In this document: positions 1 through 42,332 of the stretch, in pieces | How the letters are laid out: every line of letters begins with the position of its first letter | Position numbering within the stretch: position 1 is the stretch's first letter | From: Moorena sp. SS36440bin_2 | GTDB lineage: Bacteria; Cyanobacteriota; Cyanobacteriia; Cyanobacteriales; Coleofasciculaceae | Assembly: GCA_011524395.1 (NCBI GenBank) | Contig: WTKN01000195.1 | Coordinates: 1-42,362, forward strand | Reading direction: 5' to 3' | Length of the DNA stretch: 42,362 nucleotides | Position numbers and translations under genes: made by a program | Notes under the pieces: generated by a model | Told to the model about the DNA's origin: nothing | Databases searched by the model: none | What the model saw: only the letters and a program-made list of their open reading frames with translations

Positions 1-55
1 TAGGGAATAGGGAATAGGGAATAGGGAATAGGGAATAGGGAATAGGGAATAGGGA
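1..55. repeat. Heptanucleotide tandem repeat (TAGGGAA)n
   Basis: About eight head-to-tail copies of TAGGGAA, starting at the window edge, so the array may extend further left. This is the STRR type of short tandem repeat known from filamentous cyanobacteria. Related heptamers recur at about 8.86, 17.05 and 32.01 kb. Confidence 0.9.
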
Positions 56-60
56 TGCAG

Positions 61-124
61 CGGGTAGCGCATAAGCTGAACGCGCACGCGTGCGGGTAGC
101 GCATAAGCTGAACGCGCACGCGTG
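61..124. repeat. Two tandem 32-bp units containing GCGCACGCGT
   Basis: Positions 61-92 and 93-124 are identical 32-bp units running from CGGGTAGCGCATAAGC to GCGCACGCGTG. A related sequence appears at about 15896-15930, so this is a dispersed family. The rest of the gap to 279 holds short CTTCCCT/CTGCTCC-type repeats and no gene. Confidence 0.85.
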
Positions 125-279
125 GCCAAAGGCCTTTAGCTTACGGCGGTTTGCATAACTATCAAGTACACAGGATTTTATCCTTCTTCCCTCTTCCCTC
201 TTCCCATATCCGCTGCTCCCTGCTCCCTGCTCCCTAAAACCCAGGACTTTGTACCTAACCGAATTGAAAACCGCTGTAA

Positions 280-3961: not shown

Positions 3962-4300
3962 TCACCCCACCGCAAACTCGGTATACTGCCTCATGATGGG
4001 TGCCTGATAGGCCAACACAATATCCTGCTTTGGTACCCCTAGCTCAACTAACTGATCTGCGATCGCAATCTCCGACCCATCATGCTGTATCCAAATCTTG
4101 GCATCTTTAATATCGACATGTACAGAACACCCATAAATACGGGTGGTGTTATTTTTCCAACCCGTATGAACCATCTGGTAATGATCCCGTTCCGTATCAA
4201 AAATGAGCTGGGTTTCCATAGCCGGATTCGCCGACTTAATACTGGCGCGTTTTTTAAGCAAGTCCTGAATGTGCTGTCGATACACTTCTAGCTTATCCAT
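3962..4300 (-). CDS. xisI: XisI family protein (copy 2)
   Basis: A 112-residue XisI protein, clearly a paralogue of the one at 1374-1718: DTERDHYQMVHTGWKNN, IKDAKIWIQHDGSE and PIMRQYTEFAVG are shared with few changes. The ATG at 4300 would overlap the end of its xisH partner exactly as in copy 1, but only if a one-base frameshift in that xisH is corrected. The two pairs share orientation and lie 2.2 kb apart, separated by unrelated genes. They are diverged rather than recently duplicated, since most residues outside the core differ. Confidence 0.9.
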   Translation of the reverse strand: MDKLEVYRQHIQDLLKKRASIKSANPAMETQLIFDTERDHYQMVHTGWKNNTTRIYGCSVHVDIKDAKIWIQHDGSEIAIADQLVELGVPKQDIVLAYQAPIMRQYTEFAVG

Positions 4301-4705
4301 TGAGTAATCCTGGGTTTGGAAATGTCATAAACTACAATAGGAACCTGATTACGCGCTTATCGACTTTTGTATGAAGGGATAACTGAAAAAAGCACTGTAA
4401 ATAGTGTTAGGAACCGCAAGATGAAGTGTTCGATCAGGCTCCTCATCTTCTAAGGCAAGACGATAGTTAATAAACTGCCCAATTGCACCATGGAATTCTG
4501 AAATTCTTGAAGTTGATAGAAAGCTTTTAACTTCAATAGCTATTTTTTCATTATTGCGTTCAGCAGCAATCAGGCGTTCTGCCCCCAAATCAATGTAGAT
4601 ATCGGTAAAACCCAGATCAATGCGATAAGGATCGTGAGTAATGATCCAACCATCATTGATTAGAGCATGCTTAACTAGATCATGGAATTGATCCTTAGCA
4701 GACAT
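4288..4705 (-). pseudogene. xisH: xisH copy 2, frameshifted near the 3' end
   Basis: The intact frame from the ATG at 4705 gives 118 residues ending ...FIQKSISA at a TAA (4349-4351). It keeps the nuclease-like core: Asp in IYIDLGAERLIAAER and Glu/Lys in IEVKSF. Immediately after, in the +1 frame, come NQVPIVVYDISKPRITQWIS and a TAG at 4288-4290. This aligns without a gap to the C-terminus of copy 1 (TQINLLIYDQTQEVIRQWL). Removing a single base (the T opposite A4351) restores a 138-residue protein that overlaps xisI by the standard arrangement. So it is either a real single-base insertion or a sequencing error. The truncated protein lacks about 20 residues, including the last strand and the terminal QW motif. 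Confidence 0.8.
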
Positions 4706-4877
4706 GGGGAAATAGGTACAGGTGTCAACAGACTTCTATTCTATAGGTTAGCAAAAAGGGAATCAGCTTTTTTGATGGGTTAATTGGGTCAAGTACGGTT
4801 TCGATTTCGATCACTCCTGATATGAGAGCATTTTCCAGGCAAAAGAGATCTGAACCTAAAACTCTTAGTTATTACTT

Positions 4878-5537
4878 TTAGTTATTAATTTCATCAGTTA
4901 CTTCCTCGTGGAAAGAATTAGAAGCAAAAAGACCTCGTCCCACTTTTTTCCACCTCCCTTCTTTTGCACCTCGACGCAATTCCGTAGACAAGGAGTTTTT
5001 AGCACGGAGTTGCTCATGATCAGATTTTGGATCAAATAGCCTGCTGGCAATCTGTTCTGGGGTAACCGGATAAGCAAAACTATCTAAGATAATTTCTGCT
5101 GCTTCCCCTAATGTTTGACCTCTAAATTCACGATATAGCATATCTCTGGGATTGCGCTTGTGACTCTCCCTATCGTCTTGGTTTTCCCTTTCGTTTTCTT
5201 CAAAGGATTCCTCCTGTGATTCATCATCAAGAAAAATTCCTTGACCGACATTGCCACTATTGGCACTTGGATTTGCAGTGGGAGCTTGTTCAGACAACAG
5301 ATTTCCATTGACCTCACGGTCTTCCACCAAGGCGCTCGATATTTCCGCTGCAAGCTCGTTGCTGGATAGTTCGGCTTCAAGCTTATTCTGAAAATAGGCA
5401 ACGTTTGCCCGCTTTTGCTTAACTAAAGCCTTTACCTCAACCAGTTTCGCTTCGGCTTCAGCAAGTTCTTGCTGGGTTTTATCTAGCCGAGTCTTGATCC
5501 AAGTAATAAGCTCCTCATGAGCAGATTTAAGATCCAT
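4878..5537 (-). CDS. Coiled-coil protein with C-terminal winged-helix-like domain
   Basis: A 219-residue protein without a name I can assign. Residues 5-62 form a charged alpha-helical coiled coil (heptads such as LDKTQQELAEAEAKLVEVKA). Residues 70-130 are a low-complexity linker with a strongly acidic patch (DDESQEESFEENERENQDD). Residues 133-208 look like a winged-helix domain of the HARE-HTH or restriction-system type: FRGQTLGEAAEIILDSF, PVTPEQIASRLF, then a basic LSTELRRGAKEGRWKKVGRGLF. This layout suggests an oligomeric DNA-binding or regulatory protein. It lies between xisH and fic, 172 bp from the former. Confidence 0.7.
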   Translation of the reverse strand: MDLKSAHEELITWIKTRLDKTQQELAEAEAKLVEVKALVKQKRANVAYFQNKLEAELSSNELAAEISSALVEDREVNGNLLSEQAPTANPSANSGNVGQGIFLDDESQEESFEENERENQDDRESHKRNPRDMLYREFRGQTLGEAAEIILDSFAYPVTPEQIASRLFDPKSDHEQLRAKNSLSTELRRGAKEGRWKKVGRGLFASNSFHEEVTDEINN

Positions 5538-5663
5538 AGTTGTGAGGTGCTTGTTTTGTAAATCAAGCTTTGTAATAAAGTATAGCAGAACTCTTTAAGT
5601 TTTGCAAATCGAGCTAAAACTAATATAGTTGTTATTTTGTTCAACCCTTTAGTATCTTTCTGT

Positions 5664-5741
5664 AGTAAAGGGAACAGCGGATCACCGGAACAGGGAATAT
5701 GGTATCAAAAATTCTTACAATTCCGATACGGATTGCTATCT
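5664..5741. repeat. Dispersed repeat A, copy 1
   Basis: A block from AAAGGGAACAGCGGAT to ACGGATTGCTAT that recurs with substitutions and an extra internal direct repeat at 18829-18913. It fills part of the 465-bp gap before fic. The rest of that gap contains one HIP1 octamer (about 5927) and no gene I can recognise. Confidence 0.65.
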
Positions 5742-6002
5742 CCTAATCGTGCTAAGGAAAGGTAGTCACAGCTACAGGACTTAGGCAAAACTGGTCAACA
5801 AACCCTATCAATAGTAGGATGCATTAATAAAAACCGCTACAGGTAGAGTTGCTAGGGTAAGTCCTGACTATCATGAGTATGTAATAGGATTGCCTGTTTG
5901 CCTCCACTGCGCTCTACCTTAAAACGCGATCGCTCTTGATTGCTGATCCACAACAAAGACGATCAGTGATTTAGTTATTTATATAGAACCAATTAATAAA
6001 CT

Positions 6003-7196
6003 ATGAACCCAGAAGACTTTGAGGATAGCTCTCCAGGGAGGCTAGTATCAATAGGACACCATGAAAAACCTTGCTTTGCCTTTGTGCCGAATCCTCTGCC
6101 ACCTACACTGCAACTAGACACAAAAATTTTCAATGGCATGTCTGAGGCGGCTCTCGCTCTGGGGGAACTTGCGGGACTAGGACGTAGCATGGCTAATCCC
6201 AATCTTTTGATCAGTCCATTCATTCGCCGTGAGGCGGTTCTATCGTCTCGTATCGAAGGTACCCAAACTAATATTGCTAACCTATATGCCTACGAGAGTG
6301 AACAACTAACCCTTCCTGGTATTCTTCCTTCCCCACCAAAATCTGATCCAAAATCTGATCCAAAATCTGATGCAAAAGAAGTACTTAACTACGTACGTAG
6401 CTTGGAGTACGGTTTGAAACGCCTTGAGACCTTACCTGTATGTCTACGATTTATTTGTGAACTCCATCAACGTCTAGTAGAGGGTGTCCGTGGTGAAAAC
6501 GCAACCCCTGGAGAGTTCCGTCGCATCCAAAATTGGATTGGACCACAAACAGGAAATATGGAAGACGCTCGTTTTATTCCACCCCCTGTGCCAGAAATGT
6601 CAGGGTCTCTCAGAGACTTCGAAGCCTATCTCAACAAGGAGTGTGACTACCCACCACTGATTCGCATTGGTATAATTCATTATCAATTTGAAACAATACA
6701 TCCCTTTTTGGATGGTAATGGGCGTATCGGACGACTAATTACATCTCTTTTACTATTACATTGGAAATTACTACCACTGCCTCTACTGTATCTAAGTGCC
6801 TTTTTTGAGCGTCATCGGCAAGATTACTATGACCTGATGTTAGCGGTCAGTCAACGTGGTGCTTGGCAAGACTGGCTGTTATTCTTTCTGCGTGGTGTTA
6901 CAGAACAATCTCAAGATGCAGTGATCCGCTCCAAAAAGTTACAAGATTTACAGCTGAGGTGGCGAGATAAATTAAGTCAAGCCCGTGCGTCAGCCCTATT
7001 GCCCCGTTTAGCAGATAGTCTATTTGAGTCACCCATCCTTACCATTCCTCAAGCACAGAAGATTCTTGATGTGACTTATCCCTCTGCACACCAAAACGTT
7101 GAGAAACTCGTTAACGCCGGTATCTTAGAGCAAGTCAATACAGGCTCTTACACCAAACTATTTTGCGCACCGGAAGTTTTGCAAATACTTGACTAA
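6003..7196 (+). CDS. Fic family protein (AMP-transferase), class II with N-terminal inhibitory helix
   Basis: A 397-residue Fic protein. The catalytic motif HPFLDGNGRIGR is complete at residues 233-244, with His233 as base and the GNGR loop that binds the triphosphate. This predicts transfer of AMP (or another nucleotide) to a hydroxyl side chain of a target protein. At residues 81-86 SSRIEG fits the inhibitory (S/T)xxxE(G/N) motif, whose Glu85 would block the ATP pocket until relieved, so the protein is self-inhibited and needs no separate antitoxin. The C-terminal 90 residues, with ILTIPQAQKILDVTYPSAHQNV, look like a winged helix. A linker at 112-125 contains KSDPKSDPKSDAK, encoded by three tandem 12-bp repeats. 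The target is unknown. Confidence 0.92.
   Translation: MNPEDFEDSSPGRLVSIGHHEKPCFAFVPNPLPPTLQLDTKIFNGMSEAALALGELAGLGRSMANPNLLISPFIRREAVLSSRIEGTQTNIANLYAYESEQLTLPGILPSPPKSDPKSDPKSDAKEVLNYVRSLEYGLKRLETLPVCLRFICELHQRLVEGVRGENATPGEFRRIQNWIGPQTGNMEDARFIPPPVPEMSGSLRDFEAYLNKECDYPPLIRIGIIHYQFETIHPFLDGNGRIGRLITSLLLLHWKLLPLPLLYLSAFFERHRQDYYDLMLAVSQRGAWQDWLLFFLRGVTEQSQDAVIRSKKLQDLQLRWRDKLSQARASALLPRLADSLFESPILTIPQAQKILDVTYPSAHQNVEKLVNAGILEQVNTGSYTKLFCAPEVLQILD
6337..6372 (+). repeat. Three tandem 12-bp units inside fic
   Basis: The unit CCAAAATCTGAT occurs three times in frame, encoding PKSD repeats in the loop between the inhibitory helix and the catalytic core. Because the unit is a multiple of three, copy-number change would lengthen the linker without breaking the frame. 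Confidence 0.85.
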
Positions 7197-7204
7197 CGCC
7201 TGTT

Positions 7205-7236
7205 GAATTATACTTTAAGCCAAATAAGTATAATTC
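7205..7236 (+). terminator. Hairpin just after fic, possible terminator
   Basis: A perfect 11-bp inverted repeat (GAATTATACTT / AAGTATAATTC) with a 10-nt loop, 9 bp after the fic stop. No T-run follows, so Rho-independent termination is uncertain. Confidence 0.45.
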
Positions 7237-7938
7237 CCATGGGCAACATTATACTTAAGTTTCATCTGTCACAAGGGAGTATCAAGTTTCCCAAGACTTA
7301 CCCAGTAGCTATACCTGTAGAGTCGCGGATTAATCCACCCTACTACTGATAGAGTTTCGTCTCTAGTTTGGCCTCAGTCCTGTACCTCAACGGCTTCTTC
7401 CTGACTTCTGGCTCCTAATCAAGACTTCAAGCATAACCAGTTCAAGATTCTCGATCTGCTTCTTCCCTGCAAGTCAGTCCAGCTGTCGATGCAGTGTTAA
7501 TCAATAGTTACCTAATATTCTTGATTAATTGTAACTTACAACCCCCCCCTATGTAACTCGAAATTAAGCTCTAATTTAGATAAACCAGTTAATTGTTTGC
7601 TATAACTAAAAAAAGTCTGTTATCAGAGCTAATTTTTATAGATAATATCAGCTAGATTAATAAACCTGATTTTTTCCTGAGTTACCGCTAAATTTAAGCT
7701 TAAAATTAACCAAAACTATTCTTAGTAAATTTCAATTAGTTTCACTAGCTTTACCTCCTAAAAAGTATTGTATGATGATCATCAACAAGCAATTGATACT
7801 GCAATTGTTTGTTGGCCACTCTCTAGAAAGCTGATCGCCCTAGGCTGAAGGCTTACCTGTAAAGTTATAAACTTTTGTTAATTTCATTACCCAACAAGCT
7901 ATTTAAGATAATCAGAATCTCTAGATAATTTGATTACT
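7237..7938. other. Long A/T-rich leader without a gene
   Basis: About 700 bp with no open frame of note. The later half (7500-7930) is markedly A/T-rich and includes a run of eight or more C at about 7542. It must contain the promoter of the TVP38 gene, but I see no clear -35/-10 pair. A short stretch at about 7294-7340 (GACTTACCCA..AGCTATACCTGTAG) weakly resembles 32077-32110. Confidence 0.4.
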
Positions 7939-8751
7939 ATGTCTCAAGTTCAATTGCAACGGTCTCAACTCATGATAAGTACAAGAAGAAGCAGTCAATC
8001 TCATCCCCGAAAGGTCATGAAGGGTTTCAAGTTAGTTTCATTAACATTACTGGCAATGGTGATGGTACTGGTGGTACACGCTGAGCCTAGTTTTGCACAG
8101 GAATCCGCTAGTAGTGGAGGATTCAATCCCCAAGAAATATTGCGCAATGCTTTGCAGTGGATTGATAGTCTCGGACCCATCGGAGCGATCGCATTTATCG
8201 CAATCTATATCATTGCTGCCGTAGCATTTTTGCCTGGGTCTATCCTAACCCTAGGGGCTGGGGTAGTATTTGGTGTTGTCTTAGGCTCAATCTATGTGTT
8301 CATCGGAGCCACTATCGGAGCCACGGCTGCTTTTCTGGTTGGGCGTTATCTAGCTAGAGACTGGATTGCTCAAAAAATTGCTGGCAATGACAAATTTAGT
8401 GCCATTGATGAAGCAGTAGGTCAGGAAGGATTCAAAATTGTGCTTTTGACTCGACTCTCTCCTGTATTTCCCTTCAACCTCTTAAACTATGCCTATGGTC
8501 TAACTGGGGTTTCTCTAAAAGACTATGTCTTAGGCTCCATTGGCATGATTCCAGGAACAGTCATGTACGTTTACATCGGTTCTCTGGCTGGAGACCTAGC
8601 CATGATCGGTGGTGGTGACGCACCCACCAATCCTACTGTCCAGTGGGCAATTCGGATTATTGGTTTTATCGCCACTGTAGCTGTGACACTTTATGTGACT
8701 AATGTGGCTAAGAAGGCTTTAGACAAAAGCGTCTCCAAGGAGACAGTATAG
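7939..8751 (+). CDS. TVP38/TMEM64 (VTT/DedA-type) membrane protein
   Basis: The ATG at 7939 gives 270 residues; a TTG three codons upstream is possible but less likely. After a basic N-terminus (QRSQLMISTRRSSQSHPRKVMKG) there is a hydrophobic segment ending in AEPSFAQ. Four or five membrane helices follow, with the VTT domain signatures GAGVVFGVVLGSIYVFIGA, GRYLARDW and the re-entrant PVFPFNLLNYAYGLTGVSL. The family is thought to move or flip lipids or small solutes across the inner membrane; the substrate is unknown. It lies about 200 bp upstream of a MerA-like oxidoreductase in the same orientation, a neighbourhood often seen for these two families. Confidence 0.85.
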   Translation: MSQVQLQRSQLMISTRRSSQSHPRKVMKGFKLVSLTLLAMVMVLVVHAEPSFAQESASSGGFNPQEILRNALQWIDSLGPIGAIAFIAIYIIAAVAFLPGSILTLGAGVVFGVVLGSIYVFIGATIGATAAFLVGRYLARDWIAQKIAGNDKFSAIDEAVGQEGFKIVLLTRLSPVFPFNLLNYAYGLTGVSLKDYVLGSIGMIPGTVMYVYIGSLAGDLAMIGGGDAPTNPTVQWAIRIIGFIATVAVTLYVTNVAKKALDKSVSKETV

Positions 8752-8754
8752 CAG

Positions 8755-8838
8755 GTTTAATGTTAGGAGGTTTAGGGTTAGGAAGTTTAAGGTTAAAGGT
8801 TAGGAAGTTTAAGGTTAAAGGTTAGAAGGTTAAAGGTT
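8755..8838 (+). repeat. GGTTTAGGGTTAGGAAG-type tandem repeat
   Basis: Imperfect direct repeats of a unit of about 22 bp built from GGTTAGGAAGTTTAAGG, immediately after the TVP38 stop. Confidence 0.8.
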
Positions 8839-8860
8839 ATAGAGATCCGTGAATTTTTGT

Positions 8861-8906
8861 TCCCTACTCCCTGCTCCCTGCTCCCTACTCCCTATTCCCT
8901 ATTCCC
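8861..8906 (+). repeat. Heptamer tandem repeat (CTCCCTG / ATTCCCT)
   Basis: Six to seven C/T-rich heptamers of the STRR type, ending about 45 bp before the next start codon. The neighbouring 22-bp repeats make up the rest of this intergenic gap. Confidence 0.85.
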
Positions 8907-8951
8907 TAAAAAAAATAATTTAATTTTGAACTATCAAAGGAGTTATTATAA

Positions 8952-15722: not shown

Positions 15723-15729
15723 GGCTATT

Positions 15730-15866
15730 AGCTATCAGCTATCAGCTATCAGCTATCAGCTATCAGCTATCAGCCATCAGTTATCAGTTATCAGCTATCA
15801 GCTATCAGCCATCAGCTATCAGCTATCAGCTATCAGCTATCAGCTATCAGCTATCAGCTATCAGCT
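15730..15866 (+). repeat. Heptamer tandem repeat (AGCTATC)n
   Basis: About nineteen near-perfect AGCTATC units starting 8 bp after the preceding stop codon. The rightward frame through it encodes a YQLSAIS repeat but has no plausible start region or conservation and is not called a gene. Confidence 0.93.
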
Positions 15867-15895
15867 TTTGAATAAAATAAGCTGACGGCTGACGG

Positions 15896-15930
15896 CTGAA
15901 CGCGCACGCGTGCGCGTAGCGCATAGGCTG
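15896..15930. repeat. Copy of the GCGCACGCGT repeat
   Basis: CTGAACGCGCACGCGTGCG followed by CGTAGCGCATAGGCTGA matches the two 32-bp units at 61-124 with few changes, showing that this motif is dispersed. Confidence 0.75.
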
Positions 15931-16696: not shown

Positions 16697-16860
16697 GACT
16701 ATGGAATCCTGACTTAAAGTGGTCCACTATCTTTTTCTTTTGGCAAAATTAAAATCCGGAAACTTATCGACAATTTTTCCGGATTTGGTTAACTTACCCT
16801 TGTATTATCAACTCCGGTTGAATACCCATAATTAAGTTGAATACCCATAATTAAGAGTGT

Positions 16861-16900
16861 GGGGAGATGGGGAGATGGGGAGATGGGGAGATGGGGAGAT
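16861..16900. repeat. Five tandem GGGGAGAT octamers
   Basis: A perfect 8-bp tandem repeat, in the repeat-filled gap 16697-17100. Confidence 0.95.
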
Positions 16901-16917
16901 TTTGATTAAGCGTGATT

Positions 16918-16966
16918 TGCGCGGTCTTGGGGGTTTCCCCCATGAGCGACTGCATCAAGACAGGGT
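16918..16966. repeat. Dispersed repeat C, copy 2
   Basis: GCGCGGTCTTGGGGGTTTCC and CCCATGAGCGACTGCATC form a hairpin-prone element (GGGGG / CCCCC core) matching the copy at 1107-1233. Confidence 0.75.
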
Positions 16967-17049
16967 AATTATTCGATTGCACCATTTCCTGATCAGCTAC
17001 GATATAGCCTTTTTCATAGCTATGAGGTACACAGAATTTTTTCCCTAAT

Positions 17050-17111
17050 CCCTACACCCTACAACCTACAACCTATACCCTACACCCTACACCCTACACC
17101 CTACACCCTAT
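17050..17111. repeat. Heptamer tandem repeat (ACCCTAC)n overlapping the WcaF gene end
   Basis: About eight ACCCTAC-type heptamers. The last units supply the final codons and stop of the leftward acetyltransferase gene. Confidence 0.9.
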
Positions 17112-26702: not shown

Positions 26703-26768
26703 CTAATAGTCGTTAGTTTTTAGTCATTCGTCATTACTTATTAGTCATTGCTTTAAAGTTCTTTAAAA

Positions 26769-26806
26769 ATTAATTCTTAATTCTTAATTCTTAATTCTTA
26801 ATTCTT
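26769..26806. repeat. Heptamer tandem repeat (TTAATTC)n
   Basis: Five TTAATTC-type heptamers in the short gap between the ABC permease and apt. Surrounding sequence is rich in TTAGTCATT-like repeats. Confidence 0.9.
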
Positions 26807-26864
26807 TAAAATTTACTTTCTTTTGACCAATGACTAATAACTAATGGTTAATTTTAATGATTAA

Positions 26865-28695: not shown

Positions 28696-28754
28696 ATGTT
28701 ATTGTTGCTGATTATCGACATGCCATCAAGTATCAAGTAATAGTCAGGCGACTT

Positions 28755-28806
28755 ATTAATTAGCCATTATTCATTATCCATTATTCATTATCCATTACCC
28801 ATTCCC
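28755..28806 (+). repeat. ATTATCCATTATTC tandem repeat
   Basis: Two to three imperfect 14-bp units between the DUF3038 and DUF4335 genes. Confidence 0.8.
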
Positions 28807-30320: not shown

Positions 30321-30366
30321 AATTCAAACTTCAAAATTCAAACTTCAAAATTCAAACTTCAAAATT
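30321..30366 (+). repeat. 14-bp tandem repeat (AATTCAAACTTCAA)
   Basis: Three perfect units and a partial fourth in the gap after the DUF4335 gene. Confidence 0.95.
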
Positions 30367-30388
30367 CACGCATCAAGTTTAGAACAAA

Positions 30389-31825: not shown

Positions 31826-32006
31826 AAGTTTCTTAATCAAATATGAAAATTAACTATTGTACTTAATATATCTAGTCAAGTAAGGTCTCTTATTTAAGAT
31901 AGTTCTACCCCAAAATAAGATAGCAATGAACATAAGCGTGATGTTCTAAGAAACCAGAACAACATATGTAGCGGTTATTCTATTGATTAGATACAGAGAA
32001 TTTTTT

Positions 32007-32072
32007 ACCTATTCCCTATTTATTTACTATTCCCTATTCCCTATTTACTATTCCCTATTTACTATTCCCTAA
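32007..32072. repeat. TATTCCCTA-type tandem repeats
   Basis: Imperfect TATTCCC/TATTTAC heptamer-like units. Together with the A/T-rich stretch at 31680-31740 and the operator at 31760, they account for most of the 684-bp gap between prs and the kinase gene. Confidence 0.85.
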
Positions 32073-34938: not shown

Positions 34939-36336
34939 ATGCGATCGCGGACAATTCGAGAAGGCTCCGTTGGCTTATTGATAGTAGCAGGACTTGCTGT
35001 TTTCGGTGGACTTGTTGTATGGATTAGTGGGATTAGCTTCGGTCGAAAGAGCTATAAATTTATTGTCAATTTTGGCAACGCTGCTGGCATGCAAGTGGGG
35101 GCATCAGTCAGCTATCGCGGTGTCCAAGTTGGGAGAATCACTAACATTGAACCCGGTACTAATGGGGTCAATGTCACCGTTGAAATTGATGACCCTGGAT
35201 TGTTAATCCCCCGCAATGTCGATATTGAAGCTAATCAATCTGGTTTAATTGGTGCTACCAATGTGGATATCCTGCCTATAGGACAATTACCTGCCACGGC
35301 TCAAAGTCTTACACCCTTCGGAGCACAATGTAATTCTTCCCTAGTTATTTGTGAAGAAGATCAGATTGATGGTGACGTGGGTTCCACCTTTGCTGACCTC
35401 CTACGGAACGGAAATCGCATTGCTGAACTCTACGGTGATCCAGCGTTTTTTGACAAAATCAATAGCCTTGCTGCCAATGCCTCCAATGCAGCTAGAGACG
35501 TTTCAGAACTTAGCAAAGAGATGACCCAGTTGTCTCGCATAGTGCGGCAAGAGGTAGCAGGGTTGTCCAAAGCAACGAATGCTGTGACCAGTGCTGCCAA
35601 TCAAACATCTAGTCTAATTGGGTTGGCAACCAGTAGCATTTCTAGTACCTCCCAGGAATACAGCCAAACTGCAAAGGAACTCAATCAGTTGATTACCTCT
35701 GCTAATCAACTATTGGTCAGTAATCGGGGAAATTTGGTCACCACCTTGGATAGCATCTCTCAGGCCAGTAACGATCTGCGTGTATTGACCAGCAACTTAA
35801 CCATTACCGCGAATCAGGTTAACTCAGCGGTTTATCAAACCGATGTATCACAGATGCTGCGGAACTTAGAAAACCTATCAGCTAATGCTGCCCAAGCATC
35901 TGCTAACTTACGTAATTTGTCCGATACTCTCAACAGTCCCACTAATTTACTGGTATTGCAACAAACCCTAGACTCAGCACGAGTTACCTTTGAAAATGCC
36001 CAAAAGATTACCGCTGACCTAGATGACCTCACTGGGGATCCAGCGTTTCGCCGCAATGTCAAGGATTTAATTAATGGACTAAGCGGTTTAGTGTCTTCTA
36101 CCGAGCAGCTGCAACAGCAGGCTGTGATATCTCAACAACTGGAAGCTCTCAATACTTCTATAGAAACAGCCTCGTCTAATACTCCGCCTAAAACCCTTCC
36201 CATCCCTAAGTTTTCCCCTAAGATAGATCCCCCGAAGATAGCTCCAAAAGCTCCAGCTAATCACAACGTTAAACCAGATCAAGAAAAACAGATGTTTAAG
36301 CTTTTACCCCCAGCCCCTAGGAAATCGGTTAAATAA
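34939..36336 (+). CDS. MlaD/MCE family lipid-transport protein
   Basis: A 465-residue protein with one N-terminal membrane helix (SVGLLIVAGLAVFGGLVVWI, about 10-29). A single MCE domain follows at about 35-115, with YKFIVNFGNAAGMQVGASV, YRGVQVGRITNI and LIPRNVDIEANQSGLIGATNVDI. Residues 150-400 are long alpha-helical segments rich in Ala, Ser, Asn and Gln, likely to form a coiled tube or bundle across the periplasm. The C-terminal 70 residues are Pro/Lys-rich. By family it would be the substrate-binding part of an ABC system moving lipids between membranes. The permease and ATPase genes are not in the window. The ATG is followed directly by a HIP1 octamer (GCGATCGC). Confidence 0.88.
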   Translation: MRSRTIREGSVGLLIVAGLAVFGGLVVWISGISFGRKSYKFIVNFGNAAGMQVGASVSYRGVQVGRITNIEPGTNGVNVTVEIDDPGLLIPRNVDIEANQSGLIGATNVDILPIGQLPATAQSLTPFGAQCNSSLVICEEDQIDGDVGSTFADLLRNGNRIAELYGDPAFFDKINSLAANASNAARDVSELSKEMTQLSRIVRQEVAGLSKATNAVTSAANQTSSLIGLATSSISSTSQEYSQTAKELNQLITSANQLLVSNRGNLVTTLDSISQASNDLRVLTSNLTITANQVNSAVYQTDVSQMLRNLENLSANAAQASANLRNLSDTLNSPTNLLVLQQTLDSARVTFENAQKITADLDDLTGDPAFRRNVKDLINGLSGLVSSTEQLQQQAVISQQLEALNTSIETASSNTPPKTLPIPKFSPKIDPPKIAPKAPANHNVKPDQEKQMFKLLPPAPRKSVK

Positions 36337-36349
36337 AATTAATCAAGGA

Positions 36350-36640
36350 CTAAGTCCAATCATCCTGGCTTCCAGAACTATTGTTTCGTCTATAGGCGAG
36401 ACCGGCTTGATGAATCTGAAGGCTTTTCTCAAAAAGCTGTGATTCTGTCAGTTGCCATCGCTGGAGCAGTAAATCCAAGTCTCTTTGAATGGCTCTAGCA
36501 CCGGGAAAGCTGTCATAGCGAATCCGCAGTCGGGCTAATTCCGCCAAGTTGTGTTCATTGGGTTGTTGTTGTAACAGACGGTTAACTATTTCGCGATCGC
36601 GTTTTTCCTGAGGATGTTGCTGGTCTTGATTTCCTTCCAT
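36350..36640 (-). CDS. DUF3288 family protein
   Basis: With the ATG at 36640 the product has 96 residues, starting MEGNQDQQHPQEKRDRE; an ATG six codons upstream (36658) is the alternative. The sequence matches DUF3288, a small cyanobacterial family: DQQHPQEKRDREIVNRLLQQ, NLAELARLRIRYDSFPGAR and LLLQRWQLTESQLFEKSLQIH. It is all alpha-helical, soluble and of unknown function. It converges with the MlaD gene, ending 13 bp after it. Upstream, after two in-frame stops, its reading frame continues through the 21-bp repeat array at 36677-36970, which may be coincidence or a relic of a longer protein. Confidence 0.85.
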   Translation of the reverse strand: MEGNQDQQHPQEKRDREIVNRLLQQQPNEHNLAELARLRIRYDSFPGARAIQRDLDLLLQRWQLTESQLFEKSLQIHQAGLAYRRNNSSGSQDDWT

Positions 36641-36676
36641 TTCACTGACACTCCCCATCCCTCCACAACAAACCAG

Positions 36677-36970
36677 ACCAGGTAATAAGCTCTAACACAC
36701 GAGTAGCTATTTACCCCTAACTAGCACTACTTTTTCGCTAACTAGTACTTGTTTATCACATACTAATACTTGTTTTTCCTGAACCAGTACCGATGTATAA
36801 CAAATTGGTAGTAGTTTATCACATACCAATACTAGTTTGTCCTTAACCAGTACTGGTCTATAACAAATTAGTATTAGTTTTTCGTTAACTAGTACTAGTT
36901 TCTCACTTACCAGTACTACTTTATCATTAACTAGTAATAGTTTCTCACATGCGAGTACTGGTTTGCGGTT
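36677..36970. repeat. Array of about 14 units with an exact 21-bp period
   Basis: Units begin at 36677, 36698, 36719, 36740, 36761 and so on to 36950, with no drift. Each is centred on a degenerate dyad of the form AACTAGT-ACTAGTT; the unit at 36887 has a perfect 14-bp palindrome and the one at 36845 a perfect 12-bp palindrome (ACCAGTACTGGT). The first two units are weak. A higher-order 63-bp repeat is visible between 36782 and 36845. On the minus strand the array is an open frame of 90 codons (36979-36710) without an ATG, reading a heptapeptide close to (S/C/N)(E/D)K(L/V/Q)VLV. It lies between divergent genes, just before the exoprotein gene. Confidence 0.92.
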
Positions 36971-37000
36971 TGACCAGTGCTATAGCGTTTATTTTAGCAG

Positions 37001-38092
37001 CTATGGGACAGGTGTGACTCTGACCAACAGTGCCGGGAACTCTAAGACTGAGAGTAATCGGCCAGACAATCCCATGAAATGCGTCAGCTTCCCCTTTTCC
37101 CAAAACGCTCATCCCCTCACAGAAAGGCTACCAACAGAACCCATTTCACTAATGCAATTAGGCTTAGTGGTATTACTTGAAGTCAGTAGTCTATGTTTAT
37201 TAATTGCCTCACCAACTCTAGCTCAAATTACCCCAGATAATACCTTGGGGAATGAAAATTCAATAGTTACTCCCAATCAATCTATCCGTGATGCAGTAGC
37301 GGATTTAATTGAAGGGGGAGCAATTCGAGATAGTAACTTATTCCACAGTTTTCTGGAATTTAATGTTGGTAATGGTCAACGAGTGTATTTTGATAATCCC
37401 GATGGCATTACTAATATTTTGACTCGTGTGACTGGTAACAACCTCTCTCAAATTCTGGGGACCTTGGGAGTAAACGGTAGCGCTAATTTATTTTTGCTCA
37501 ATCCCAATGGTATTAACTTTGGAAGCAATGCCAGCTTAGATGTAGCAGGCTCTTTTGTAGCTAGTACTGCTGATAGTGCAATATTTGATAATGGTTTCAA
37601 CTTTAGTGCGAGTGATCCAAATGCCCCACCATTGTTAACCATCAATATTCCCATCGGTTTGCAATATGGTAGCAATCCTGGCTCAGTCAACGTTACAGGA
37701 GCTACTTTAGGCATAGAGACGGGGCAAACCATGGCTTTACTTGGGGGTGAAGTTAACCTCAATGGTGCTACTCTGCAAGTGCCCGGCGGACGAGTGGAAT
37801 TAGGAGGATTATCCAGTCCAGGAACAGTTGCCCTCAATGGCGCGACATCCGTTAGTTTTCCCGATGGTGTCCAACTAGCTGATGTTTCCTTGAGCAACGG
37901 TAGCTTGGTAGATGTCACTTCAGTTAATGGCGGAACTATTGCCATCAATGCTGCGAATTTCGACATGTCTCAATCCACTTTACAAGCTGGATTGACTTCA
38001 GGAGAATCGATACCAGATGCAGTAGCTGGCAATATCACTATTAATGCTAATGGTAATACCACTCTCAGTGACAAGAGTTTGATTGCTAATGA
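37001..38092 (+). repeat. 1.09-kb direct duplication, left copy
   Basis: Matches 41222-42313 at a constant offset of 4221 bp with no insertion or deletion. Identity is patchy: 37005-37177 and 37776-38035 are identical, while 37178-37775 and 38036-38092 carry scattered differences. Confidence 0.95.
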
Positions 38093-41000
38093 TTTACTAA
38101 CAGGTGCTATCGGCAATGGTGGCAACATCCAGCTAAGCACTAGTGCCCTAACTATCACTGGTGGCTCAAGAGTTCAAACCATTACCAATAGCAATGGGGC
38201 ATCAGGAGATATTGAGATTAAGGCTAATGGTGCCATTGATATCTCCGGTTTTACTGAAGATGGGTTATTTAGTGGTATTCTGACTCGTTCCGCTGCTGAC
38301 ACTAGTGGCCCAGGAGGCCAGATTACCCTTAACAATACCCAAGGGTCACTGAATCTAGGTAATCGGGGATTTATCGGTACAGTAACCAACAGTAGTAGTA
38401 ATGGCGGTGCGATCGCACTCCATCTCAATACCTTAGTCCTGGAAACTGGTGGACAGATTGTCACTGCTACTACTAACCTAGGCAATGCTGGAGATATCAC
38501 CATTAACGCTAGCGAAAGCGTCACCATATCTGGGGAAAGTCGGGATTTTGTGCCTAATCCTTTGTTGGACTTAGAAACCTTTGACTTAAATGCTCTAGAG
38601 TTTATTACTGACCCCAATCCCAACGTAGCGGAATCCGGACCATTGGGAATACCCTATGTTTCCATTGAACGGACTCCAGAACAGATTATTAATGGCACCA
38701 CTGTCTTGGGTGCAGCCGAAAATCAATTCGATTACTTCTCCTTCAGTATCACGAATGGCAACAGTCGAGCTATTTTCGACATCGACAATGGGTTTACTAG
38801 GGAAGACGGCAGCGTAGATACTGAGATTTTTCTATTTAATCAACGCACAGGAGAATTATTAGAGGCCAATGACGATTCTGAAGCTGCTGATGGTGCCGGT
38901 GGCAGTATAGCAAGCTTTGGCAGTTCAACCCTCGACTCTTTAATTGATACCACCATCACCTCACCAGGGGTTTACTTACTCGGAGTTGGTGTCTTCCCCT
39001 CTAGTGCTAGGAATAATCAATTGATCCAGGGCGCAACACCAGAAGTCGGGGACACTTACACCCTGCAAGTGTCTTTAGAAAACCTTGGCACTGAAGGAGT
39101 CTCGTTGCCCAAAGACCCTTTCAATCCGGCTAACTTTAATCCTAATATGGAAGAAGCCAGGAGCGGCTTATTTTCGGAATCGAGAGGGACAGGTAATGGT
39201 GGCAGCTTAACGATTAATACCGACAAATTGATACTGAACAATCCTGGTAGAATTTCTACCGATACCTTTGATACGGGTGCTGGTGGCAATATTACCTTAA
39301 CTATCGGCTCATTGCTCGAAGTGAATCGATCAAGTATCTCAAGCATTTCCCGAGGTAGTGGTAATGCCGGTAATCTAGTGATTGATACCAAACAATTCCA
39401 GGTGAACGGGGGTGGTCTAAGTACGAGCACCTCAAGCTCAGGTAATGCTGGTGATATTACCATTACGGCGACAGAATCTGTGATTCTGGGAGTAACAACC
39501 TCTCGGGGCAGAATCGCTAGCAATGCCAGAAATGGAGCAACTGGCAATGGCGGCAGGGTGGTTGTTGAAACTCCAGTTTTGCAGTTGCATAATGGCGCTC
39601 AGATCAACTCGCTTAATCGGGGAGATCTCAATAGGGGGGGCAGTATAACGATAAGAGCTAAGGTCGTCTCAGCCATTGGTCGCTCACCTAATGGTATACG
39701 TCCTAGCGCCTTCGTTACAGCTACAGAGGAATCTGGCGATGGTGGCAATTTAACCATTGAAACCGAGCGTTTGCTTGTCAGTGATGGAGCAGAATTTTTT
39801 TCTGATACTTCTGGAGATGGGGATGCCGGAAATATAACGGTGTACGCCTCAGAGTCGGTAGATGTGATTGGTACTGATGCTAGTGGTACATTCTCTAGCG
39901 GCATATTCACCAGTAGACTAAATATTGATACCACTCGGGAGGAAATTGTTGGGAAGGGGGGCAATCTAGTAATTGAAACTGGGCGTTTGCGAGTGGCAGA
40001 GGGGGGACGTCTCCAAGCCTCTGCGGTTGGTTCTGGGGATGCTGGCAGTATTACCATTCGTGCCACTGAGGTCGAGGTCAGTGATGCTTTTGTCGATTTT
40101 ACTGGTGCGGTCAGTGGTGTGTTAGTTTCCGTGGATGAAGAAGCCACTGGCAATGGCGGTCAATTAACCATAGATGCTGAACGCTTGCACATCTTCGATG
40201 GTGGACAGGTGATTGCGTCTAGCTTAGGGGATGGTGAAGCTGGGGATATCATCCTCAATGTTAATGACATAGAAGTCACTGGTATTTCAGAAGACCCTCA
40301 GTATCGTAGTCGCATTGCAGCCTTCTCAGAAGGTAACTCGGCTGCGGGTTCCGTGACCATTACCAGTAACAACTTGAGAGTTCGTGATAGTGCCGAAATT
40401 TCCGTTAGTGCTCGTGGTAATGGGGATAATGCCAAGGCTGGTAATCTTGACATTACCGCTGAATCGATTCTATTAGACGGGGGTGCTACCCTTTCTGCGG
40501 AAGTTAATGCTGGAGATCAGGGCAATATTATCCTGGATTCTGAGCTGATTGTAATGCGCGATCGCAGTAACATCACTACCAATGCCCAAGGTTCTGCTAC
40601 TGGCGGTAATATTACTATCGATACTGATTTGCTAGTTGCCCTCGACAATAGCGATATCACGGCCAATGCTGTAAATAGCTTTGGGGGGCAAGTTTTCATC
40701 AATGCCTTAGGCATTTTTGGCACTGAATTTCGAGTTGAACTTACCCCAGATAGTGATATTACCGCCACTTCCGAACGGGGAGCTTCCTTTAGCGGTACCG
40801 TCGAAATTAATGCACCATACTCTGACCCTAACGCGGGATTATTCGAGCTACCGTCCACTTTTGTTAATCCCAAACTGCTAGTTGCCACTGGTTGCGGTAC
40901 TGATGAAGGTAATCAATTTACCGAATTTGGGCGCGGTGGCTTACCCACAGACCCCACTAAACCGCTGAGGGGTCAAACCCTGTGGATGGATTTACGGCCA

Positions 41001-41201
41001 TTACCTCGCCACACCGCTCGCCGTCGGAAAAATCCTTCTAGTGCTTCTAGTGCTGCTAATCCAGGTAACTCACGTCCGTCTAGAATTGTTGAAGCTAATC
41101 GCTGGATTATTAATAACGACGGAGTGGTGGAGTTAGTGGCTGATTCACCTCAGTCGAATCCGTTCATTTCCTGGTTCTCTCCTTATTATTGCGTACGGTA
41201 A
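37074..41201 (+). CDS. Two-partner-secretion exoprotein (filamentous haemagglutinin/S-layer type)
   Basis: From the ATG at 37074 the product has 1375 residues; a frame extension to a TTG at 36963 and an internal ATG at 37153 are alternatives. The hydrophobic LGLVVLLEVSSLCLLIASPTLAQ is the signal peptide, cleaved near residue 51. The TPS domain follows (about 52-190) with ITPDNTLGNENSIV, FLLNPNGINFG and ANLFLLNP. Then come beta-helix repeats of the GNGGxIxIxTxxLxLxxGxxI kind. At about 539-669 a PPC-like beta-sandwich interrupts them (ENQFDYFSFSITNG, DTEIFLFNQRTG, GVYLLGVGVF). The C-terminal VATGCGTDEGN...GRGGLPTDP...LWMDLRPL block is typical of cyanobacterial members. It should be exported by a TpsB pore, not present here. 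Confidence 0.9.
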   Translation: MKCVSFPFSQNAHPLTERLPTEPISLMQLGLVVLLEVSSLCLLIASPTLAQITPDNTLGNENSIVTPNQSIRDAVADLIEGGAIRDSNLFHSFLEFNVGNGQRVYFDNPDGITNILTRVTGNNLSQILGTLGVNGSANLFLLNPNGINFGSNASLDVAGSFVASTADSAIFDNGFNFSASDPNAPPLLTINIPIGLQYGSNPGSVNVTGATLGIETGQTMALLGGEVNLNGATLQVPGGRVELGGLSSPGTVALNGATSVSFPDGVQLADVSLSNGSLVDVTSVNGGTIAINAANFDMSQSTLQAGLTSGESIPDAVAGNITINANGNTTLSDKSLIANDLLTGAIGNGGNIQLSTSALTITGGSRVQTITNSNGASGDIEIKANGAIDISGFTEDGLFSGILTRSAADTSGPGGQITLNNTQGSLNLGNRGFIGTVTNSSSNGGAIALHLNTLVLETGGQIVTATTNLGNAGDITINASESVTISGESRDFVPNPLLDLETFDLNALEFITDPNPNVAESGPLGIPYVSIERTPEQIINGTTVLGAAENQFDYFSFSITNGNSRAIFDIDNGFTREDGSVDTEIFLFNQRTGELLEANDDSEAADGAGGSIASFGSSTLDSLIDTTITSPGVYLLGVGVFPSSARNNQLIQGATPEVGDTYTLQVSLENLGTEGVSLPKDPFNPANFNPNMEEARSGLFSESRGTGNGGSLTINTDKLILNNPGRISTDTFDTGAGGNITLTIGSLLEVNRSSISSISRGSGNAGNLVIDTKQFQVNGGGLSTSTSSSGNAGDITITATESVILGVTTSRGRIASNARNGATGNGGRVVVETPVLQLHNGAQINSLNRGDLNRGGSITIRAKVVSAIGRSPNGIRPSAFVTATEESGDGGNLTIETERLLVSDGAEFFSDTSGDGDAGNITVYASESVDVIGTDASGTFSSGIFTSRLNIDTTREEIVGKGGNLVIETGRLRVAEGGRLQASAVGSGDAGSITIRATEVEVSDAFVDFTGAVSGVLVSVDEEATGNGGQLTIDAERLHIFDGGQVIASSLGDGEAGDIILNVNDIEVTGISEDPQYRSRIAAFSEGNSAAGSVTITSNNLRVRDSAEISVSARGNGDNAKAGNLDITAESILLDGGATLSAEVNAGDQGNIILDSELIVMRDRSNITTNAQGSATGGNITIDTDLLVALDNSDITANAVNSFGGQVFINALGIFGTEFRVELTPDSDITATSERGASFSGTVEINAPYSDPNAGLFELPSTFVNPKLLVATGCGTDEGNQFTEFGRGGLPTDPTKPLRGQTLWMDLRPLPRHTARRRKNPSSASSAANPGNSRPSRIVEANRWIINNDGVVELVADSPQSNPFISWFSPYYCVR

Positions 41202-41221
41202 CAGCACTTGGGACTATGGCG

Positions 41222-42313
41222 CTACGGGACAGGTGTGACTCTGACCAACAGTGCCGGGAACTCTAAGACTGAGAGTAATCGGCCAGACAATCCCATGAAA
41301 TGCGTCAGCTTCCCCTTTTCCCAAAACGCTCATCCCCTCACAGAAAGGCTACCAACAGAACCCATTTCACTAATGCAATTAGGCTTAGTGGTATTACTCG
41401 AAGTCAGTAGTTTATGTTTATTACTTGCCTCACCCACCCTCGCTCAAATTACCCCAGATAATACTTTGGGAAATGAAAATTCAATCGTTACTCCCAATCA
41501 AACTATCCGTGGTGCAATAGCAGATTTAATTGAAGGGGGAGCAATACGAGATAGTAACTTATTCCATAGTTTTATCGAATTTAATGTTGGTAATGGTCAA
41601 CGAGTGTATTTTGATAATCCCGATGGGATTACTAATATTTTGACTCGTGTCACTGGCAGCAACCTCTCTCAAATTCTGGGCACCTTGGGAGTAAACGGTA
41701 GCGCTAATTTATTTTTGCTTAATCCCAATGGTATTAACTTTGGAAGCAATGCCAGCTTAGATGTAGCAGGCTCCTTTGTGGCTAGCACTGCTGATAGTAC
41801 GGTATTTGACAATGGTTTCAACTTTAGTGCTAGTGATCCAAATGCTCCACCATTGTTAACTATCAATATTCCCATCGGTTTGCAATATGGTAGCAATCCT
41901 GGTCCAGTAAACGTGACAGGAGCTAGTTTAGGCATAGATACAGGGCAAACCATGGCTTTACTTGGGGGTGAAGTTAACCTCAATGGTGCCACCCTACAAG
42001 TGCCCGGCGGACGAGTGGAATTAGGAGGATTATCCAGTCCAGGAACAGTTGCCCTCAATGGCGCGACATCCGTTAGTTTTCCCGATGGTGTCCAACTAGC
42101 TGATGTTTCCTTGAGCAACGGTAGCTTGGTAGATGTCACTTCAGTTAATGGCGGAACTATTGCCATCAATGCTGCGAATTTCGACATGTCTCAATCCACT
42201 TTACAAGCTGGATTGACTTCAGGAGAATCGATACCAGATGCAGTAGCTGGCAATATTACCATTAACGCTCAAGGTAATACTAATCTTAGTGACAAAAGTT
42301 TGATTGCTAATGA
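41222..42313 (+). repeat. 1.09-kb direct duplication, right copy
   Basis: Second copy of the leader, signal peptide and TPS domain of the exoprotein gene. Homology to the left copy stops abruptly after ATGA at 42313. Confidence 0.95.
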
Positions 42314-42332
42314 ACCTATCCCACTAATATAA
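41295..42332 (+). pseudogene. Truncated duplicate of the TPS exoprotein gene
   Basis: From the ATG equivalent to that of the first copy, the frame runs 345 residues. It keeps the signal peptide and the whole TPS domain (NPNGINFG, ITPDNTLGNENSIV) and the first beta-helix turns, then changes to unrelated codons (EPIPLI) and stops at 42332. It lacks the rest of the beta-helix, the PPC-like domain and the C-terminal block. It starts about 90 bp after the stop of the first copy. It could still yield a secreted stump, or the gene may continue beyond an insertion that begins at 42314. The window ends 49 bp after the break, so this cannot be decided. Confidence 0.8.

What the first reader, a model, noticed from the sequence alone, without database searches (positions are those of the whole stretch)
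36677..36970. Exact 21-bp-period array: helically phased dyads or a relic heptapeptide gene
About 14 units keep a period of exactly 21 bp for 294 bp, close to two DNA helical turns, and their cores are dyad-symmetric (perfect palindromes at 36887-36900 and 36846-36857). A dimeric protein could bind every unit on one DNA face, next to a large exoprotein gene. Equally, 21 bp is seven codons. The minus strand is open for 90 codons as a heptad (x)(E/D)K(L/V)VLV, where the sixth position is nearly always Leu written with several different codons (CTA, CTG, TTG, TTA, CTC). That looks like selection on protein, yet there is no ATG, and two stops separate it from the in-frame DUF3288 gene.
Basis: partly seen in the sequence, partly recalled or inferred. 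Interest (0 to 1): 0.68.

Follow-up and report, generated by a model that had tools for sequence, protein, structure and literature searches.

The report
Dispersed 21-bp palindrome array, not gene
A 294-base stretch built of fourteen 21-base near-palindromes is one copy of a repeat family scattered between genes of the marine cyanobacterium Moorena; it is not a protein gene, and it changes over time somewhat as a row of binding sites for a symmetric protein would, although no such protein is known.

Summary
The array is real: 14 units, exact 21-bp period, 36677-36970. It is one of about eight copies in its own genome. All four Moorena species held carry the family, and weaker or variant 21-bp arrays turn up in four other genera of the same family. 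It is not a gene. In-frame stops recur at the same units in many copies, some copies shift frame by 1 bp, and substitutions show no synonymous excess. The "many Leu codons" arise because GTAC-T-N always reads CTN.

Between homologous units, substitution rates are mirror-symmetric about the GT|AC dyad (r = 0.91; p = 0.004 at that centre, 0.11 if any centre were allowed). The fast-changing arms rarely change in compensation, so unit hairpins are not what is conserved. Arrays show fewer indels than flanks, weakly once matched. Copies lie between genes, usually 5' of TPS exoprotein or TPR/CHAT genes. The window's locus lacks the array in three other species. Neutral spread by co-duplication is nearly as likely: single sites outside arrays are at background, and distance to the presumed promoter varies.

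The parts
36677..36970 (-). 21-bp-period array, 14 units, consensus (minus strand) NNNGANAAAC-NN-GTAC-NN-GTT; best conserved A-N-A-N-A-NNN-GTAC-NNN-T
36887..36900 (.). perfect 14-bp palindrome AACTAGTACTAGTT, one unit core
36846..36857 (.). perfect 12-bp palindrome ACCAGTACTGGT, one unit core
36665..36676 (.). conserved end of the element on the DUF3288 side (ACAACAAACCAG), shared with other copies that have the same kind of end
   Evidence: e.g. C310 and G3_57
36350..36658 (-). DUF3288 gene (PF11691), starts next to the array and reads away from it
34939..36336 (+). MlaD-domain gene (PF02470), syntenic neighbour used to find the same locus in other species
37152..41201 (+). TPS-domain exoprotein gene (PF05860), reads away from the array; ATG taken at 37152 (the mechanical ORF opens at 36963 TTG)
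37000..37151 (+). leader of the TPS gene, parts of which are conserved also in TPS paralogues that have no array
41208..42332 (+). second, tandem TPS gene copy near the contig end; no array upstream of it

Best explanation
The feature is a copy of a non-coding, dispersed, intergenic element made of about 8-18 tandem 21-bp units. Each unit is a degenerate dyad, A-A-C-N-N-GTAC-N-N-G-T-T, plus a 7-bp spacer. Most likely it acts as a DNA platform: a dimeric DNA-binding protein contacts the conserved GTAC core and the outer A/T positions of each unit, and because units are 21 bp (two helical turns) apart the dimers line up on one face of the DNA and can bind cooperatively next to the promoters of neighbouring genes, often TPS exoprotein or TPR/CHAT genes. 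Shown: repeat family, non-coding state, near-constant period, intergenic position. Supported but not proven: dyad-symmetric constraint, selection on spacing. Inferred: the protein, cooperative binding, any effect on expression.
For: Dispersed family: arrays on 8 contigs of the own genome and in all 4 Moorena species held. Substitution rates between homologous units (100 unit pairs from 9 disjoint array pairs) are mirror-symmetric about GT|AC: r=0.91, the highest of 42 centres, permutation p=0.004 (0.002 in a second run) for that centre; the same without the unit-score filter. Rates are 0.00-0.04 at A4, A6, A8, T13, A14, C15, T19 and 0.18-0.27 at the arms 9, 10, 17, 18. The arms do not compensate: at (10,17) 35% of units pair and 1 of 10 double changes keeps pairing, so the symmetry looks like recognition rather than base pairing. 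268 of 276 steps are 21 bp. Indels: 1 in 2140 aligned array bp against 7 in 907 flank bp. The period is not a harmonic of 7. In 11 of 12 distinct loci examined a flanking ORF reads away from the array, and in 9 of 12 it is a TPS or TPR/CHAT-type gene.
Against: No protein or transcript is known. Allowing any of 42 centres, the symmetry p is 0.11. The indel contrast, p=0.0012 as first counted, falls to p=0.03 when only the four pairs with alignable flanks are used (1 in 1028 v 7 in 907) and to 0.10 without the two 7-bp flank gaps. At one shared locus (G2_151/G3_445) the arrays are only 74% alike while the flank on one side is 98% alike. Perfect AACNNGTACNNGTT sites, those in arrays included, are near the reversed control: 25 v 18, 22 v 26, 19 v 22, 24 v 18 in the four Moorena, so there is no scattered regulon. 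Distance from array to a conserved CTATAAT before the TPR genes varies (49, 56, 70, 83, 231 bp; not found in 2 of 7). Of 30 TPS loci scanned 28 lack arrays, of 30 TPR loci 21. Enrichment near TPS/TPR genes may be co-duplication. One locus (C215) is convergent. The conserved A-N-A-N-A left of the dyad has no mirror on the right.
Confidence: 0.42

Rival explanations
1. Neutral or selfish intergenic satellite: an old tandem array copied with neighbouring large repetitive genes (TPS, TPR/CHAT) and by ectopic recombination, with unit exchange between copies producing the shared unit order; no function for the host.
For: Unit order and ends are shared between copies; the window copy and C310 share the TPS gene flank (89% over 1572 bp), as expected from co-duplication; the array is absent at the window's locus in 3 of 3 other Moorena species; a group II intron sits inside an array in one species; at one shared locus the arrays differ far more than a flank; perfect sites over the genome are near control level.
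Against: Strongly unequal rates within the unit, highest symmetry at the dyad, and few indels are not what freely drifting satellite DNA would show; some arrays are kept at the same place in two species with 92-96% alike units (C403/G2_461, G2_444/G3_100).
Confidence: 0.41
2. RNA- or single-strand-level structure: transcribed arrays fold into hairpins (leader, mRNA stabiliser, processing signal).
For: Both strands fold better than dinucleotide shuffles, z -5.0 and -6.2; an excess of complementary arms, 63 of 236 distinct units against a shuffle mean of 40.6 and maximum of 64 in 5000; at (11,16) both of 2 double changes keep pairing (5 of 5 in the larger set).
Against: Any tandem array of near-palindromes folds well on either strand; arms pair in only 35% (10,17) and 52% (9,18) of units and double changes there mostly break pairing (1 of 10 and 1 of 4 keep it); no Rfam family (best E 0.15, far under gathering); no terminator-like site.
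Confidence: 0.08
3. Relic of a heptapeptide-repeat gene. The reader's strand reads x(D/E)KxVLV; the other strand reads NxYxF(L/I)x, which resembles an NGYPFVE-type heptad in 21-bp arrays of three other genera.
For: In those genera (G006, G007, G014; 15 arrays) the heptad frame has 20 stops in 1442 codons against 34-142 in the other five frames; third positions change more (0.33 v 0.19 and 0.16) and the synonymous fraction is 0.351 against 0.237 expected, over 50 of 105 array pairs that overlap in membership; a protein query from there hits one Moorena array at E 1.7e-4.
Against: In the other genera stops also recur at the same unit (FQ*), and I saw no complete gene. With only 21 positions per unit the codon test is weak.
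Confidence: 0.07

Closest known systems
TAACTGA heptamer direct repeats of Beggiatoaceae and cyanobacteria (PMC4679880; outline with abstract and the section on cyanobacteria read)
   Same: Many intergenic tandem arrays, in cyanobacteria too, often near starts of genes, proposed as binding sites for a regulator.
   Different: 7-bp perfect direct repeats; here 21-bp degenerate dyads with no 7-bp periodicity.
REP/BIME/REPIN palindromes of bacteria (PMC3116915 and PMC3733652 seen in search listings only; details recalled)
   Same: Dispersed extragenic palindromic units, non-coding.
   Different: Many 20-40 bp hairpins with a REP-associated transposase (partly recalled); here few long arrays, arms that do not compensate, and no transposase gene seen directly beside the arrays examined.
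Iteron, operator and centromere-like arrays (recalled; no call)
   Same: Tandem sites about two helical turns apart that load a protein cooperatively.
   Different: Those lie at replication or partition loci beside the gene of their protein; here some 5-8 copies scattered per genome and no such gene seen beside them.
STRR heptanucleotide repeats of cyanobacteria (recalled; papers seen in the listing)
   Same: 7-bp tandem repeats abound in the same window and next to many arrays.
   Different: Period 7 with near-identical units; array identity at lag 7 is 0.32.

Membership tests
Protein-coding heptad repeat gene | open frame without recurrent stops | tested here: not met
   shared TAG/TAA, 20-bp steps; the window copy alone is open for just under 90 codons
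Protein-coding heptad repeat gene | excess of synonymous change | tested here: not met
   0.224 observed v 0.279 expected (reader frame), 0.231 v 0.226 (other strand)
Array of dyad sites for a dimeric DNA-binding protein | dyad-symmetric constraint without compensatory pairing | tested here: inconclusive
   r=0.91, p=0.004 at the dyad, 0.11 over all centres; left A-N-A-N-A has no mirror
Array of dyad sites for a dimeric DNA-binding protein | constant spacing of whole helical turns | tested here: met
   268 of 276 steps are 21 bp, 8 are 20
Array of dyad sites for a dimeric DNA-binding protein | spacing kept by selection (fewer indels than flanks) | tested here: inconclusive
   p=0.0012, 0.03 or 0.10 depending on matching
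Array of dyad sites for a dimeric DNA-binding protein | a protein that binds it | not testable with these tools
   -
Array of dyad sites for a dimeric DNA-binding protein | isolated sites elsewhere, or sites phased to the promoter | tested here: not met
REP/BIME-type hairpin repeats | stems kept by compensatory change | tested here: not met
Heptanucleotide STRR / TAACTGA repeats | 7-bp period | tested here: not met
Transposon-like miniature element | terminal inverted repeats with target-site duplication | tested here: inconclusive
   ends shared between copies look alike in inverted sense (by eye), as palindromic end units would; no clean empty site, since the intergenic DNA differs
Known structured RNA (Rfam 15) | match over the gathering score | tested here: not met

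The most novel reading that the evidence does not exclude
Coleofasciculaceae carry an undescribed class of cis-acting arrays, dyad sites spaced exactly two helical turns apart, read by an unknown protein that loads cooperatively on one DNA face and controls surface exoprotein and CHAT-type conflict genes. The unit sequence drifts quickly between genera while period and dyad stay.
Probability: 0.22. Interest if true: 0.66.

Novelty: new variant of a known kind. Interest (0 to 1): 0.4.

Why it matters
If the arrays bind a protein, they give a direct way to find it (array DNA as bait) and a natural series of spacing and unit-number variants with which to test whether one-face helical phasing is what selection maintains. 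They would also mark a set of exoprotein and CHAT genes as jointly controlled in a genus known for its natural products (the last point recalled). If they are neutral, they are a clear example of an intergenic satellite whose period only looks functional.

Tried and rejected
Heptad on the other strand: rejected for Moorena, open for the variant arrays of three other genera. Hairpin covariation: an early impression from a few units (GG/CC, CA/TG arms) that held only in part: 63 of 236 distinct units complementary v a shuffle mean of 40.6, but double changes at the arms mostly not compensatory. Pairing between arms of neighbouring units: within or below the shuffle range at offsets 1-4. Seven-bp origin: rejected. 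Known RNA: none. Phages and plasmids: no match; viral contigs gave one hit that reads open over the 161 bp shown. The same design elsewhere: an exact two-unit pattern over 84,980 species gave 14 stretches, 10 of them Moorena (records near the window may be left out). Of the other four, the Neisseriaceae and Deltaproteobacteria stretches read open over what was shown, Chitinophagaceae (L056) is a non-coding array of near-identical units and Acidobacteriota (L058) a degenerate one. By my own rough arithmetic such arrays could arise by chance among all 21-bp tandem repeats, so I claim no homology. The order-wide GTAC x5 pattern hit 20 of 291 genomes; 4 are Moorena, and of the other 16, first places were printed for 13 and none printed is of the AAC..GTT kind. 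Literature: the searches listed no paper on this array by title or abstract; most subscription papers are not held.

Mended on re-checking. One array pair (C306/G1_673) had been aligned in the wrong orientation (49% alike; 78% when turned), which added false substitutions; it is now left out. My script had kept four non-array units for the half-array G2_5753 (it has 8) and three stray end units for C215, which touched. Corrected values replace those: symmetry r 0.94 became 0.91 and its all-centre p 0.039 became 0.11; steps 261 of 271 became 268 of 276; the indel contrast was re-done on matched pairs. I lowered the best explanation from 0.48 to 0.42 and raised the neutral rival from 0.36 to 0.41 for that reason.

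Rows dropped: G2_5753 from the model alignment (C344, G2_5757 and G3_100 also not used there, 19 of 22 printed pieces used); units scoring under 10.5 from rates (the unfiltered run gave the same); 11 of 18 flanks, under 70% identity, from the indel count. In some searches only part of the first-look candidates per genome were scored (up to 19, and 150 of 739-2176), so absences there are not exhaustive. Genes were called as long ORFs, not by a gene finder. The array at L061/L082 and at G003 C279 was not examined for neighbours.

Full report
What is there. The array is real, and its period is not a harmonic of the 7-bp simple repeats that fill this window: lag identity is 0.58 at 21 bp against 0.32 at 7 and 0.31 at 14, and no lag from 5 to 119 passed 0.42 in 500 Markov controls. 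It has 14 units (36677-36970). On the minus strand the unit is NNNGANAAAC-NN-GTAC-NN-GTT, a 14-bp degenerate dyad with a 7-bp spacer.

Where it is from. The window is contig C357 of a 7.75-Mb assembly. This identification is by inference.

It is a dispersed family. In the own genome arrays lie on eight contigs (C357, C310, C403, C215, C141, C344, C124, C306). By DNA similarity 4 of 37 genomes match, and these are the four Moorena held. A sequence profile of four units (19 array pieces) matches 8 of 20 family genomes: strongly the four Moorena, with 34-61 overlapping matches each, and more weakly G019 (E 1.8e-11), G014, G006 and G007 (E 6e-4 to 5e-3). Copies share an ordered series of unit types and two kinds of right-hand end, so whole arrays have been copied. 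The arrays counted hold 8-18 units, besides the two halves (8 and 7) of one split by an insertion.

It is not a gene. Codon-position rates are 0.12, 0.08 and 0.12. The Leu column with many codons follows from the DNA, because GTAC-T-N always reads CTN.

What is conserved. Comparing homologous units (100 unit pairs from 9 disjoint array pairs), rates are 0.00-0.04 at A4, A6, A8, T13, A14, C15 and T19 and 0.18-0.27 at the arms (9, 10, 17, 18); positions 2, 3 and 5 of the spacer are also fast. The profile is mirror-symmetric about GT|AC: r=0.91 over seven pairs, the highest of 42 centres, permutation p=0.004 (0.002 in a second run) for that centre, which the palindrome names in advance, and 0.11 if any centre had been allowed. 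Leaving out the unit-score filter changes nothing. The symmetry is not base pairing at the arms: at (10,17) 35% of units pair and 1 of 10 double changes keeps pairing; at (9,18) 52% and 1 of 4. At (11,16) both of 2 double changes keep pairing (AGTACT against GGTACC), which may be unit exchange. Left of the dyad A-N-A-N-A is conserved without a mirror on the right, so units also have polarity. An earlier set with one wrongly oriented pair gave r=0.94 and is superseded.

Spacing. 268 of 276 steps between trusted units are 21 bp and 8 are 20 bp. In nine closely alike array pairs (seven between species, two within a genome, some arrays used more than once) there is 1 gap event in 2140 aligned array bp, against 7 in 907 bp of alignable flank, Fisher p=0.0012. 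With only the four pairs whose flanks align it is 1 in 1028 against 7 in 907 (p=0.03), and without the two 7-bp flank gaps p=0.10. This is a lean, not proof. At another shared locus (G2_151/G3_445) the arrays are only 74% alike while one flank is 98% alike, so arrays can also change fast.

Surroundings. Collapsing like-placed or closely alike copies by eye leaves 12 loci whose neighbouring ORFs were examined. In 11 a neighbour reads away from the array, and one (C215) is convergent; that excess is not significant if a quarter of gaps are convergent. In 9 of 12 the neighbour reading away is a TPS exoprotein (window, C310) or a TPR/CHAT-type gene; in one of these nine groups two of five members have an NTPase gene there instead. 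The rest are a CAP protein, an RRXRR-HNH (IscB-like) gene beside an NB-ARC/EAD4 gene, and the convergent one. The genome has 47 CHAT matches and 31 matches to the TPS N-terminus, so this is well above a random draw of neighbours by my estimate, but gene duplication explains part of it: window and C310 share the TPS flank at 89% over 1572 bp, and several TPR genes are close paralogues. Of 30 TPR loci fetched of 41 hits, 9 have an array within the fetched 1.5 kb; of 30 TPS loci fetched of 107 hits, 2 do.

Presence and absence at the window's locus. MlaD, DUF3288 and a TPS gene (or its remains) lie in the same order in the three other Moorena species, but the DNA between DUF3288 and the TPS leader is unrelated and has no array (scan). 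The tandem second TPS copy in the window shares 185 bp of leader and gene start at 99% and has no array. So the array is an optional addition just upstream of a conserved leader.

How it probably works. The reading I put first is a platform of dyad sites, each contacted by a dimer of an unknown protein, two helical turns apart on one face of the DNA, which would allow cooperative loading next to promoters. Shown: family, non-coding state, period. Supported: symmetric constraint, kept spacing. Inferred: the protein and any regulation. Against it: perfect sites, those in arrays included, are near the reversed control (25 v 18 in the own genome), and the distance to a conserved CTATAAT before TPR genes varies (49, 56, 70, 83, 231 bp; not found in 2 of 7). 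The main rival, now nearly as likely, is a neutral or selfish intergenic satellite carried by duplication and recombination. RNA structure is less likely: both strands fold well (z -5.0, -6.2), which any palindromic array does, and pairing is not maintained at the arms.

Variant arrays in relatives. Three other genera (G006, G007, G014) have their own dispersed arrays with the same 21-bp period and a dyad core near AAYGRGTACYCRTT. There the frame NGYPFVE has the fewest stops of six (20 of 1442 codons), third positions change more, and the synonymous fraction is 0.351 v 0.237 (50 of 105 pairs of 15 arrays, not independent). Yet stops recur and I saw no complete gene. A protein query from there hits one Moorena array at E 1.7e-4.

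Verdict. Observation confirmed; of the two interpretations the phased-dyad one is mildly favoured by indirect evidence and the gene one is rejected for Moorena. I found no published description in the searches, and file it as a new variant of intergenic repeat arrays.

Noticed in passing
L075, about 4114-8395 (G002:C1, about 5753.1-5757.4 kb): An insertion of about 4.3 kb with a group II intron reverse transcriptase (RVT_1, RVT_N, GIIM) splits an array that is uninterrupted in G003; junctions read TGTTA/GTGCG and CTAAC/TACACC.
   Followed up: partly
L166-L194 (mostly G006, G007, G014): A second dispersed 21-bp array family with an NGYPFVE-type heptad frame, raised third-position change and shared unit order (FGFPLIG-KPFVFQR-KVNLMIT-NGYSFVE-...).
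   Followed up: partly
L158:1491-1600 (G019:C681): A short 21-bp GTAC array just upstream of a 204-aa ORF resembling phage terminase small subunit (PHROG 2538, E 9e-8).
   Followed up: partly
L056:5995-6300 (Chitinophagaceae MAG): A non-coding intergenic array of near-identical 21-bp units such as AACCAGTACTCGTTTAAGTAG, much like a Moorena unit; chance not excluded.
   Followed up: partly
window 1-235, 8749-8908, 15724-15899, 16860-17110, 26709-26864, 28753-28803, 30321-30376, 32004-32071: Many different short tandem repeats, mostly of 7 bp, some mixed with 14- and 21-bp multiples.
   Followed up: no
window 37152-42332: Two TPS exoprotein genes in tandem, 95% alike in the 148 residues compared, the second near the contig end.
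   Followed up: partly
L071:2295-7973 and L080:2216-7904: Arrays between an NB-ARC/EAD4 gene and an RRXRR-HNH (IscB-like) gene in two species (domains scanned in L071 only).
   Followed up: no
L009, just before 5666, and several loci: A short dispersed palindromic element (reads as AVAHGGNPQDRAAS in one frame) interrupts the C310 array and recurs near other arrays.
   Followed up: no
L015:258-467 and L079:3881-4235: Arrays beside the same CAP gene in two species have opposite unit orientation by my scan; 78% alike when one is turned.
   Followed up: partly
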